From DRGV01 sp018903055 [NCBI: bacterium] (lineage in GTDB: Bacteria; UBP18; UBA7526), in NCBI GenBank assembly GCA_018903055.1, contig JAHIPW010000124.1, positions 1-7,443 of the forward strand: a DNA stretch of 7,443 nucleotides, in the 5' to 3' direction. The notes under the pieces were generated by a model, which ran no database searches, was not told the origin of the DNA, and worked only from the letters and a program-made list of their open reading frames with translations. Positions 1 to 7,412 of this stretch are shown here, piece by piece; the stretch's first letter is position 1; every line of letters starts with the position of its first letter. The translations under genes were made by a program, and so were the position numbers.

Positions 1-1342
1 ATTGCATTTTCAAGATGACAATCTTTAGGGCATCAATGCGAGAGGTCTGTCCAGCACCGATGGCCAAGGTCTGATTCTCACTGCTTATCACAATGGCGTT
101 TGATTTTACATACTTCGCCACTTTCCAGGCAAAGAATAAAGCCGCTAACTCTTCCTTTGTCGGCTTCCTCTTGGTTACTGTTTTGAAGTTTTTGGTTTTG
201 ATATCTTTAATATCCTTATCCTGAACCAACAATCCCCAGTCTACTGTCCGTAAATCCTTTTTCTGACATTGGACGTTGCCTCTCGTCCCGAGGGGACTCG
301 AGATCCCCGAGGGAGACATTGGACATTGGACAACTCTTAGGTTTTTCTTTTTCTTCAGGACTTTTATGGCCTGCGGAGTAAACCCAGGGGCAATGACTGC
401 TTCAATAAAAGTAGAGGTTACTTCTTTGGCCGTAGAGATGTCGGCTTTTCTGTTCAGGCCGATCACTCCCCCAAAGGCGGAAAGGGGATCACAGTCTCTC
501 GCCTTTTGGTAGGCACTCACCAAATTTTTATCTCTTGCTACACCGCAGGGATTAGTATGTTTAATAATAACTGCTGTCGGTTCTTTAAACTCTCTAATTA
601 TACTCCAGGCAGCATCCAGATCCAGTATATTATTAAACGATAACTCCTTCCCCCCCAGCTGTTTCGGTAATCGGTAATCGGTAATCGGTGATCGGTAAAA
701 AGCCGCTTTCTGATGAGGATTCTCCCCGTACCTCAAATCCTTAACCTTCTTATATTCCAGAAATAACTCCTCAGGTAGCCTGTAGCCTGTAGCTTGTAGC
801 TTGTAGCCTGTCAAGCATCCATATACCATTCTATCATAATGAAGGATATAAACAAGAGCCTTCCTTGCTAAATTTTCTTTAGTTTTTAGTGGTAGATTAC
901 CCCTTCTCTTTCTCAATTCATTCAGGGTCTTCTTATAATCTCCGGACTCAATGACTACTCCCACATTCTTAAAATTCTTGACTGCTGATCTGATGAGAGC
1001 CGTTCCTCCGATATCTATGCTCTCTAAGTTGTGAAAGGGATAGAGATTGACTACTACAAGATCGATGGGCTTTATATCTTCTCTTGCCAATTCCTTTAAG
1101 TGCTTCTTCTCACGCAAGGCCAATACCCCTCCGAAAATCGCAGGATGCAAAGTCTTTACTCTCCCTTCTAAAATTTCTTTAAAGCCTGTAATCTCTGAGA
1201 TAGTCTTGACTGGAATACCCTTCTTTTTAAGTATTCTCGCTGTGCCCTCAGTAGCGATGATCTCAAAGCCCAATCTCACTAATCCCTTAGCAAAGGGAAC
1301 AAGGCCCCTCTTATCGGAGACACTGATCAGAACCCTCTTCAT
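1..1342 (-). CDS. purH: Bifunctional PurH (AICAR transformylase / IMP cyclohydrolase), 3' end cut by window edge
   Basis: PurH carries out the last two steps of IMP synthesis: formyl transfer to AICAR, then ring closure. The ATG at 1342-1340 follows a GGGGAG ribosome site, and 447 codons are open to the left edge. The N-terminal cyclohydrolase domain (about 1-165) shows ISVSDKRGL, GRVKTLHP (60-67), VVNLYPF (97-103) and IDIGGTALIRSA. The transformylase domain shows LRYGENPHQ (203-211), FNNILDLDAAW, IIKHTNPCG with the catalytic Lys-His at 261-262, DPLSAFGG, FIEAVIAPGF, LLVQDKD and VKSNAIVIS. The family is about 510-530 aa, so roughly the last 80 residues lie outside the window; this is not a truncation. 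Three low-complexity inserts at about residues 178-190, 217-227 and 338-360 fall in variable linkers and keep the frame. Minor oddities are F70 where most homologues have His (KTLHPxIHGG) and W369 where most have Gly (GGLLVQ). It probably shares a purine transcription unit with purB. Confidence 0.96.
   Translation of the reverse strand, partial: MKRVLISVSDKRGLVPFAKGLVRLGFEIIATEGTARILKKKGIPVKTISEITGFKEILEGRVKTLHPAIFGGVLALREKKHLKELAREDIKPIDLVVVNLYPFHNLESIDIGGTALIRSAVKNFKNVGVVIESGDYKKTLNELRKRRGNLPLKTKENLARKALVYILHYDRMVYGCLTGYKLQATGYRLPEELFLEYKKVKDLRYGENPHQKAAFYRSPITDYRLPKQLGGKELSFNNILDLDAAWSIIREFKEPTAVIIKHTNPCGVARDKNLVSAYQKARDCDPLSAFGGVIGLNRKADISTAKEVTSTFIEAVIAPGFTPQAIKVLKKKKNLRVVQCPMSPSGISSPLGTRGNVQCQKKDLRTVDWGLLVQDKDIKDIKTKNFKTVTKRKPTKEELAALFFAWKVAKYVKSNAIVISSENQTLAIGAGQTSRIDALKIVILKMQ
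265..330 (-). repeat. In-frame insert in purH: ACATTGG array interrupted by GC-rich palindromic core
   Basis: The 10-mer GACATTGGAC occurs at 265-274 and again at 315-324. The second copy runs on as a further 7-bp ACATTGG unit to 331. Between the copies lies a 40-bp GC-rich core (275-314) with internal symmetry: GTCCC-GAG-GGGAC at 285-297, and GGGGA/TCCCC arms around CTCGAG at 292-308. On the minus strand the block encodes about 23 residues of PurH (338-360) between the conserved LRV and DLRTV stretches, rich in Ser, Pro and Gly, without breaking the frame. The identical 10-bp flanks could be a target duplication or simply array units. Confidence 0.85.
664..698 (-). repeat. Five-copy 7-bp array (TTACCGA on minus strand) inside purH
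   Basis: Five contiguous 7-bp units begin at 664, 671, 678, 685 and 692. On the plus strand they read TCGGTAA, except the fourth, which is TCGGTGA. In the purH frame they give the peptide SPITDYRLP (about 218-226), placed between the conserved NPHQKAAFYR and LGGKELSFNNILD stretches. The plus-strand unit contains TAA, so the array would stop translation in the opposite orientation. The orientation present is the one that stays open in all three frames. Confidence 0.93.
775..809 (-). repeat. Five-copy 7-bp array (AGGCTAC/AAGCTAC on minus strand) inside purH
   Basis: Five contiguous 7-bp units begin at 775, 782, 789, 796 and 803: GTAGCCT, GTAGCCT, GTAGCTT, GTAGCTT, GTAGCCT on the plus strand. 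In the purH frame they encode TGYKLQATGYRLP (about 178-190). This forms the linker between the cyclohydrolase domain (ending near YDRMVYG) and the transformylase domain (KDLRYGENPHQ). The plus strand carries TAG in each unit, so only this orientation is open to translation. The array has no sequence in common with the 7-bp array at 664-698, apart from unit length. Confidence 0.93.
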
Positions 1343-1357
1343 TGCTCACTCCCCTCG

Positions 1358-1458
1358 CAGATATCAGATCTCAGAAGTCAGATATCAGTTTGTTTTGTAG
1401 TAAGTTATTGCTGATTTCATCCGCAATCTGAAAACTGAAATCTGAAGACTGATATCTG
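1358..1458. repeat. Inverted pair of degenerate 7-bp arrays upstream of purH
   Basis: The left array (1358-1388) has units CAGATAT, CAGATCT, CAGAAGT, CAGATAT and a final CAG. The right array (1428-1458) has CTGAAAA, CTGAAAT, CTGAAGA, CTGATAT and a final CTG. CTGATAT is the reverse complement of ATATCAG, so the arrays face each other across 39 nt and can form an imperfect stem of about 30 bp. They fill most of the 128-nt gap between the end of the isochorismatase-like gene and the purH start. No T-run follows the stem on the minus strand, so I do not call it a terminator. It may affect purH mRNA stability or read-through. Confidence 0.85.
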
Positions 1459-3780: not shown

Positions 3781-3873
3781 CACAGATTAGCACAGATTGA
3801 CTAAACTGATTAGCACGGATTTAGCAACGAACATCAGTGCTAATCCGTATCTTTTAATCTGTGCCTATCCGTG
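3781..3873. repeat. Long imperfect inverted repeat built of GATTAGCAC-type units
   Basis: The left arm (3781-3816) contains CACAGATTAGCACAGATT and GATTAGCAC. The right arm (3837-3873) is its approximate reverse complement. The inner 9 bp GATTAGCAC/GTGCTAATC (3808-3816 and 3837-3845) match exactly, and 11 of 12 match when extended outward. CACAGATT and CACRGAT recur further out. The loop is 20 nt. It occupies most of the 148-nt gap between the patatin gene and cspA. RNA from either strand can fold into a long hairpin. No T-run follows on the minus strand. Confidence 0.88.
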
Positions 3874-3887
3874 TAAGATTATCTCTT

Positions 3888-7262: not shown

Positions 7263-7337
7263 TGGAGCCGACGGAGGGATTTGAACCCCCGACCTAAGCT
7301 TTACGAAAGCCTTGCTCTACCACTGAGCTACGTCGGC
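7263..7337 (-). tRNA. tRNA-Thr (anticodon CGT)
   Basis: A full cloverleaf with encoded CCA. The acceptor stem GCCGACG/CGTCGGC is perfectly paired, the D arm reads GCTCAGTGGTAGAGC, and the anticodon loop TTCGTAA is closed by AGGCT/AGCTT. The T arm is GGGGG-TTCAAAT-CCCTC. G1-C72 and C2-G71 fit threonine identity. Discriminator base 73 is U, less common for bacterial tRNA-Thr. Position 1 follows directly on the CCA of the upstream tRNA. Confidence 0.95.
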
Positions 7338-7412
7338 TGGTGCCGCAGGGCGGAATCGAACCTCCAACCTACGGTTTACGAAACCGTTGCTCTACCACTG
7401 AGCTAAGGCGGC
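7338..7412 (-). tRNA. Second tRNA-Thr (anticodon CGT), with stem mismatches
   Basis: The cloverleaf is recognisable, with encoded CCA, A73, a perfect anticodon stem ACGGT/ACCGT around TTCGTAA and a normal D arm. The acceptor pairs only over its first five positions (GCCGC/GCGGC); pairs 6-67 (C-U) and 7-66 (U-C) are mismatched. The T stem has A51 opposite G63. Another pair, U(-1)-A73, could extend the stem outward. It may be a decaying duplicate of the neighbouring gene or a non-standard functional tRNA. Its CCA touches the first base of the downstream tRNA, so processing must cut exactly at that junction. Confidence 0.85.

What the first reader, a model, noticed from the sequence alone, without database searches (positions are those of the whole stretch)
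664..809. Two unrelated 7-bp tandem arrays translated inside purH
purH carries a 5-copy TTACCGA array and a 5-copy AGGCTAC-type array 76 bp apart. Both are in frame and both fall in variable linkers between conserved motifs. Because 7 is coprime to 3, a stop-free 7-bp array encodes the same heptapeptide cycle in every frame. Both units are stop-free only in the strand direction present, since the other strand has TAA or TAG in each unit. This suggests a class of mobile or expanding repeat that housekeeping genes tolerate by design or by selection. Rickettsia palindromic elements are a described parallel, but the sequences and unit length differ.
Basis: partly seen in the sequence, partly recalled or inferred. 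Interest (0 to 1): 0.75.

Follow-up and report, generated by a model that had tools for sequence, protein, structure and literature searches.

The report
Changing 7-base repeats inside housekeeping genes
This bacterium and its relatives carry many short 7-base tandem repeats, a good share of them translated inside housekeeping genes at the same loops in different genera, where the repeat often stays while its sequence changes, which makes them a natural test of how repeats are born, kept and rewritten.

Summary
In detail: purH carries a TTACCGA array (664-698) and a CAGGCTA array (775-811), both in frame. A third, interrupted CCAATGT array (265-332) was missed. They belong to a genome-wide population: 45 period-7 arrays of 23 units in 339 kb of this draft genome, 44 in 331 kb of relative G003, and 12 in 615 kb of 40 genomes outside the family. 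Of 101 arrays read in the family, 47 lie inside ORFs. At 13 of 14 comparable gene sites another genome carries an array at the same loop (26 of 38 pairs, against 25 of 911 control windows); in 20 of those 26 the 7-mer differs, sometimes by one base. So site and period persist while the unit turns over. No MutS, and no MutL over the cut-off, was found in six draft family genomes; RecA was found in all six. A 36-bp palindromic element (25 copies) is flanked by in-phase heptamer units in all 9 copies read, including purH and dapF. Best reading: old slippage-type arrays in tolerated loops, homogenised and sometimes replaced or copied, with selection filtering frame and stops. Heptanucleotide arrays are known; unit turnover at fixed coding sites is the new part.

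The parts
2..1342 (-). purH (AICAR transformylase / IMP cyclohydrolase), host gene, 3' end beyond the contig
   Evidence: NF002049 1.7e-159 above cut-off; PF01808, PF02142; PDB PurH chains, best 3zzm 2.9e-88
664..698 (-). site B: 5-copy TTACCGA array, aa 216-227 (YRSPITDYRLPK), between two strands of the model
   Evidence: orthologues carry AAAATGC here in G003 and G004, no array in G002
775..811 (-). site A: 5.3-copy CAGGCTA/CAAGCTA array, aa 179-190, low-confidence loop (pLDDT <50 at 180-186)
   Evidence: G003 AGTTACC, G004 partial GCCACAG, G002 degenerate, same length and register
315..332 (-). site C, 5' part: 2.6 copies of CCAATGT
265..278 (-). site C, 3' part: about 2 copies of the same heptamer (one mismatch) after the palindrome, in phase with the 5' part
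279..314 (-). 36-bp GC-rich double-hairpin element, translated (about SPSGISSPLGTRG), nested in the site C array; 25 places in this draft genome within 3 mismatches
   Evidence: pLDDT <50 at aa 344-360
1358..1388 (.). intergenic 7-bp array CAGATAT upstream of purH, 4.4 copies, 79% matches
1425..1458 (.). intergenic array of alternating heptamers upstream of purH (14-bp AATCTGAAAACTGA, 2.4 copies)

Best explanation
The arrays are microsatellite-like heptanucleotide repeats made and re-made by replication slippage or short-repeat recombination with a 7-nt step, in a clade without detectable MutS/MutL mismatch repair. Many intragenic arrays are old: they were already in tolerated surface loops of purH, dapF, yjeF and other genes before the genera split. 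They persist because loss in steps of 7 breaks the frame unless three units go at once or a paired change follows. Gain-then-loss steps spread one unit variant through an array, so the unit drifts in concert while period, place and length stay; at some sites the unit has been replaced outright, perhaps by copying from other loci. Selection acts as a filter (frame kept, no stop, loop position). Shown: arrays, period-7 excess, shared sites, different units, MutS/MutL not found. Inferred: slippage, homogenisation, copying, the causal role of repair loss, and the reason for 7.
For: Perfect tandem duplications are most in excess at period 7: 146 seen vs 20.3 expected in G000, 130 vs 25.3 in G003, 52 vs 45.3 in 40 genomes outside the family; period 8 is next, 46 vs 7.0 and 39 vs 8.0. 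Arrays: 45 in 339 kb and 44 in 331 kb, with 23 and 28 unit types. Site persistence: 38 unique genome pairs at 14 sites, array present in 26; 13 of 14 sites have one in at least one other genome; control windows of the same alignments 25 of 911. Unit differs in 20 of 26, between genera in 16 of 20. Constant length: PurH site A is 81 nt in 4 of 4 genomes, site D 42 nt in 3 of 3. In-phase likeness: site A G000/G003 22 of 33 matches in phase, at most 11 of 33 off phase; site D G003/G004 25 of 29 against at most 16 of 28. TsaD: the G003 gap is 7 aa, exactly three units, and keeps AAAGTCCAAAGTC of the G000 unit. MutS1 0 of 6 family genomes against 24 of 25 others (23 over the cut-off); MutL 0 of 6 over cut-off (one weak match in G001) against 23 of 25; RecA 6 of 6, 5 over its cut-off. 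PurH arrays A and C fall in segments with pLDDT <50 (aa 180-186 and 344-360).
Against: At PurH site B, YjeF G000/G005, TsaD G000/G004 and the ligase-like site the units do not clearly match in phase, so concerted drift does not explain all; in-phase likeness could also reflect kept amino acids. Units recur at unlinked loci far above chance (40 same-unit pairs in G000, null mean 1.1, maximum 6 in 2000 simulations), and the purH CAGGCTA array shares a 33-bp string of variants with L014:90-132; local slippage alone predicts neither. In the smaller sample (five family genomes, 198 kb) period 7 gave 16 arrays and periods 4-6 and 8-11 together also 16, so dominance is less sharp there. Repair loss is neither needed nor enough on these samples: G006 and G021 have MutS and MutL but also arrays (3 and 6 in 20 kb each), while G016 and G018 lack MutS1 over the cut-off and MutL and show none in 26 kb. 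Nothing shows why the step is 7. The genomes are incomplete (53-93%).
Confidence: 0.55

Rival explanations
1. Repeated independent births. Each genus gains its own arrays, and only a few loops in each protein tolerate them, so hits fall on the same loops by selection, not by descent.
For: Units differ in 20 of 26 pairs and several sites show no clear in-phase likeness; PurH site B and YjeF have no array and a shorter loop in G002.
Against: Same register and length at PurH site A in four genomes with in-phase likeness 22 of 33 for G000/G003, and site D 25 of 29; identical CTGGATA array in DapF of G000, G003 and G004; a three-unit length difference in TsaD.
Confidence: 0.25
2. Arrays are scars of small mobile palindromic elements: insertion duplicates 7 bp of arbitrary target, loss leaves the duplication, and further rounds or slippage extend it.
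For: 9 of 9 copies of the 36-bp element read here have at least about one heptamer unit on both sides, in phase, of three different units; some CGAACTC copies have hardly more than one unit a side. Other hairpins split arrays in G003 and G004.
Against: Most arrays read contain no palindrome. Simple inverted repeats with 9-bp perfect arms lie within 40 bp of an array (score 12 or more) in 3 of 104 and 2 of 81 cases, 1.5 and 1.2 expected; the hits of this test do not include the 36-bp element. In purH there are about two units on each side, more than one duplication gives. CGAACTC flanks 19 of the 25 places, so it may be part of the element, and the element may simply land in existing arrays.
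Confidence: 0.12
3. The arrays are functional DNA or RNA sites, for example regulator-binding heptamers or phase-variation switches.
For: Heptamer repeats elsewhere were proposed as regulatory: TAACTGA (PMC4679880, abstract and three sections read) and GGGACCG in Geobacter (PMC2700814, passages).
Against: Units are many and change at the same site between genera; a single 7-bp step in purH or dapF would shift the frame of a housekeeping enzyme.
Confidence: 0.05
4. Assembly artefact of metagenomic contigs.
For: All six family genomes are incomplete drafts of about 50-191 contigs.
Against: The same sites recur in separate assemblies with open frames; arrays are not enriched within 150 bp of contig ends in G000, 2 of 45 against 2.4 expected.
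Confidence: 0.02

Closest known systems
Heptanucleotide long simple sequence repeats of prokaryotes (Mrazek et al. 2007, not held; known here only through PMC4679880 and PMC4692102)
   Same: Heptanucleotides were the most abundant long repeats in most genomes; polymerase slippage with a 7-nt contact was proposed
   Different: There, units whose length is a multiple of three were the likeliest in coding regions; here 7-bp arrays sit inside housekeeping genes and keep the site while the unit changes
TAACTGA direct repeats of Beggiatoaceae, Cyanobacteria, Bacteroidetes (PMC4679880)
   Same: 7-bp arrays of 2-6 copies; the stop-free strand and frame argument was made there; coding regions of 25 predicted proteins contain or overlap them
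   Different: That work follows one unit, mostly upstream of start codons, related heptamers being rare; here 23 units in a third of one genome
GGGAATC and GGGGA(T/C)T repeats of Xanthomonas and Nostoc (PMC4692102, passages)
   Same: Preference for four units; [quoted passage not shown]
   Different: One G-quadruplex motif family, mainly intergenic (7-11% intragenic in Xanthomonas, 68% intergenic in Nostoc)
Four-copy GGGACCG elements of Geobacter metallireducens (PMC2700814, passages)
   Same: 49 elements in inter- and intragenic places, sometimes more than one per gene
   Different: A single unit family, read there as regulatory
Rickettsia palindromic elements (through the review PMC10969869, passages)
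   Same: The 36-bp element at 279-314 is a dispersed palindrome translated in frame inside housekeeping genes (purH, dapF)
   Different: 36 bp rather than about 150 bp, and set between heptamer repeats

Membership tests
Heptanucleotide simple sequence repeats | Tandem period of 7 well above chance and above neighbouring periods | tested here: met
   146 vs 20.3 and 130 vs 25.3 perfect duplications; 45 and 44 arrays against 0 and 2 of periods 3-6 and 16 and 24 of period 8
Heptanucleotide simple sequence repeats | Copy-number variation by slippage | tested here: inconclusive
   One exact three-unit difference in TsaD between G003 and G000; no strain-level data
TAACTGA repeats | Unit TAACTGA | tested here: not met
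   None of the 101 arrays listed for the family samples has canonical unit AACTGAT
GGGAATC / G-quadruplex heptamers | G-tract of 3 or more in each unit | tested here: not met
   purH units TTACCGA, CAGGCTA and CCAATGT have no run of three G or C
Rickettsia palindromic elements (arrays) | Palindromic element of about 150 bp | tested here: not met
   Arrays A and B are 35-37 bp direct repeats
Rickettsia palindromic elements (36-bp element) | Dispersed palindrome inserted in frame in unrelated genes | tested here: met
   25 places; in frame in PurH and DapF
Rickettsia palindromic elements (36-bp element) | Length of about 150 bp | tested here: not met
   36 bp, so it is called RPE-like only

The most novel reading that the evidence does not exclude
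In this family the place and the 7-bp period of a repeat inside housekeeping genes are inherited, while the sequence of the repeat is not: arrays are continually rewritten, by homogenisation or by copying from a pool of dispersed heptamers, at constant length and in frame, in cells without classical mismatch repair. Coding DNA would then carry a period as its conserved character.
Probability: 0.4. Interest if true: 0.75.

Novelty: new variant of a known kind. Interest (0 to 1): 0.58.

Why it matters
That bacterial long repeats favour a 7-bp step was noted in 2007 with a slippage proposal, and the later papers I read do not settle it. A clade with a hundred 7-bp arrays of many units in the parts read, no detectable MutS/MutL, and orthologous coding sites where the array stays but the unit changes makes the slippage, homogenisation and insertion models testable by plain comparison. 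It also warns that peptide repeats such as ITDYRLP or LQATGYR in predicted proteins can be by-products of DNA repeats and not protein motifs.

Tried and rejected
Contig breaks at arrays: not enriched, 2 of 45 near ends against 2.4 expected. Association of arrays with simple inverted repeats: 3 of 104 and 2 of 81, close to the 1.5 and 1.2 expected, so the palindrome link rests on the one 36-bp family and a few hairpins that split arrays (of 6 interrupted arrays in G000 and 6 in G003, 3 and 3 have a clearly folded insert, z -2.7 or lower; the other 6 do not). Shared flanks of same-unit arrays, which would mark a mobile carrier: not seen in most of the listing; exceptions are two AAAGTCC arrays (L005, L082) with a shared right flank, two AAACCGT arrays (L005, L090) with weakly alike right flanks, and orthologous pairs in relatives. 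Rfam finds only two tRNAs in the window. The source organism could not be named: I spent the one scan of named genomes on the TTACCGA pattern, and its listing says that records of the own genome may be left out. The Mrazek 2007 paper is not held, so it is cited through two later papers. Searches that might have shown a print report of unit turnover inside genes (capped listings and abstract starts, except for the papers named in this report) showed none that I recognised. The printed output was cut in the middle; one search made the table anew.

Full report
Check. The window is contig 115 of a draft genome (1,085,295 bases, 191 contigs, 85% complete). purH lies on the minus strand at 2-1342. 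Two 7-bp arrays are present as stated, far beyond chance (best 13 in 500 Markov simulations, observed 22 and 22). A third heptamer array in the same gene, CCAATGT at 265-332, is split by a 36-bp palindromic element. Two more heptamer arrays lie upstream of purH.

Genome scale. The first 21 contigs (128 kb) gave 19 period-7 arrays with score 12 or more and a mean of 0.0 in three Markov simulations; periods 4-6 gave none and period 8 gave 3. With 61 of 191 contigs (339 kb) there are 45, of 23 units; in G003, a relative of another genus, 44 in 331 kb, of 28 units. Periods 3-6 gave 0 in G000 and 2 in G003; period 8 gave 16 and 24. The other four family genomes, read over 18-48 kb each, gave 4, 3, 3 and 2 arrays (6-22 per 100 kb). 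In the first family sample (198 kb of five genomes) period 7 gave 16 and periods 4-6 and 8-11 together also 16. Perfect tandem duplications are most in excess at 7 in G000 and G003 and near expectation at 7 in 40 genomes outside the family. Those 40 (of 54 in the search, first 20 kb or less of one contig each) held 12 arrays in 615 kb, 9 of them in two genomes and one of the others a poly-A run. The same unit recurs at unlinked places: 40 same-unit pairs in G000 against a null mean of 1.1, and 26 in G003 against 1.05. The purH CAGGCTA array and an intergenic array at L014:90-132 share an identical 33-bp string, with the same order of CAAGCTA and CAGGCTA units, which hints at copying between loci. 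CAGGCTA x2 has 18 hits in G000, 2 in G001, 1 in G003, none in the other three; the reversed control has none. Those 117 stretches (819 kb, chosen for this unit and so biased) hold 296 period-7 arrays, 119 of them of the query unit, against 28 of period 8 and 6 of period 6.

Inside genes. With simple ORF calls (100 aa or more, longest first), 16 of 45 arrays in G000 and 22 of 44 in G003 lie wholly inside an ORF; 7 and 6 overlap an ORF end; ORFs cover 86% and 89% of the samples. Over all six family samples 47 of 101 are inside. Arrays are thus depleted in genes but common there. Of the first 13 intragenic arrays of G000 (41 contigs), the genes besides purH are, by Pfam, DapF (two arrays), radical SAM/DUF2344, a GltD-like oxidoreductase, acyltransferase, formyltransferase, M23 peptidase, a Big_5/beta-propeller protein, pyruvate oxidoreductase, YjeF and TsaD. 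The consensus unit is open on the sense strand in 42 of 47 intragenic arrays, and 21 of these 42 are also open on the other strand; of 54 arrays outside or overlapping ORF ends, 31 are open on one strand, 14 on both and 9 on none. In the PurH model (mean pLDDT 85.5) arrays A and C fall on segments with pLDDT below 50, and array B lies between two strands.

The same sites in relatives. PurH site A: G000 GCTACAA/GCTACAG, G003 AGTTACC, G004 partly GCCACAG, G002 degenerate; 81 nt in all four. Site B: G000 TTACCGA, G003 and G004 AAAATGC, G002 none. Site C: G003, G002 and G004 ATCACCG or ATTACCG, G000 CCAATGT; G000 and G003 have a palindrome in it. Site D: G003 CCACATC, G004 TCACATC, G002 no array by score; the G000 contig starts here. 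DapF loop: G000 CGAAACC, G003 AAAATGC, G004 and G005 AAAATCA, G002 AAAATGC beside unread bases. YjeF loop: G000 ATCCAGG, G003 and G004 CGCATTC, G005 AGCGACC (weak), G002 none. In all, 47 site comparisons, 34 with an array at the site, against 25 of 911 windows from the same alignments. Without reciprocal counts these are 38 pairs at 14 sites, 26 with an array, 6 of the 26 with the same unit and 20 with a different one, of which at least two differ by a single base (PurH A G000/G004, PurH D) (the list was made by hand). Pairs at one site are not independent, so the Fisher value printed there is only a guide. A site counts only where an orthologue with 55% identity or more was among the fetched sequences; relatives were only partly read.

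Descent or new birth. At PurH sites A and D different units match in phase much better than out of phase, and YjeF G000/G003 less strongly; at PurH B, YjeF G005, TsaD and the ligase-like site the comparison is not clear. Retained amino acids could add to in-phase likeness. I read this as old arrays whose unit drifts in concert, with replacement at some sites.

Repair. With the MutS1 profile there is no match in 6 family genomes and a match in 24 of 25 others (23 over the cut-off; one of the 24 is only a weaker, MutS2-like match). MutL: 0 of 6 over the cut-off, one weak match in G001 at 1.6e-4, against 23 of 25 others. RecA: 6 of 6, 5 over the cut-off, G002 split into two pieces below it. Taking completeness as chance of recovery (85, 53, 82, 93, 83, 75%), missing one gene in all six by incompleteness would be about 4 in 100,000 (my arithmetic, assuming independence). 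The link to the arrays is inference: two genomes with arrays have both genes, and two without MutS1 over the cut-off and MutL show no arrays in 26 kb. That MutS mainly repairs loops of up to about four bases, so that 7-base loops escape it anyway, is recalled; relaxed control of recombination between diverged repeats may matter more.

The palindrome. The 36-bp element at 279-314 has 25 places in the own genome within 3 mismatches and none for the reversed control. All 9 copies within the fetched contigs have heptamer units on both sides that continue in phase across the element: CCAATGT (window, L005), AAAGTCC (L007, in dapF) and CGAACTC (6 copies, some with little more than one unit a side). 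With CGAACTC arms there are 19 places in G000, 5 in G001 and 1 in G004, so CGAACTC may travel with the element. In purH and dapF it is translated in frame. It either lands in arrays or helps to make them; I could not decide.

Known work. Heptanucleotides as the commonest long repeats, with the slippage proposal, are reported from Mrazek 2007 by PMC4679880 and PMC4692102 (sections and passages read). Single-unit heptamer families are described in Beggiatoaceae, Cyanobacteria and Bacteroidetes, in Xanthomonas and Nostoc, and in Geobacter, the last also within genes. So this is a known kind. What I did not find in print (searches named under Tried and rejected) is many units in one small genome, held at the same in-frame sites across genera with the unit exchanged.

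Noticed in passing
window 279-314: Dispersed 36-bp double-hairpin element, 25 places in the genome, translated inside PurH and DapF and flanked by heptamer units in the 9 copies read.
   Followed up: partly
window 3781-3880: Intergenic cluster of CACAGATTAGCACAGATT / CTAATCCGTG-type repeats in both orientations; period-22 arrays of similar sequence occur in L019, L020 and L088.
   Followed up: no
G002:C55:12103-13142: RecA of this relative matches in two pieces about 160 bp apart and below the cut-off; possibly interrupted, but the stretch could not be fetched.
   Followed up: partly
family genomes G000-G005: MutS1 not found and MutL not found over the cut-off in any of six draft genomes.
   Followed up: partly
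G000 and G003 samples: Period-8 arrays are the second class (16 and 24), with periods 9-13 rare.
   Followed up: no
L014:90-132 and window 775-807: Intergenic array with the same 33-bp string of unit variants as the purH CAGGCTA array.
   Followed up: no
window 7263-7412: Two adjacent tRNA-Thr genes with the same CGT anticodon.
   Followed up: no
L102, L136, L146 (other phyla): Longer TTACCGA arrays in a Verrucomicrobiales MAG, Daejeonella sp. and a Spirochaetaceae MAG.
   Followed up: no
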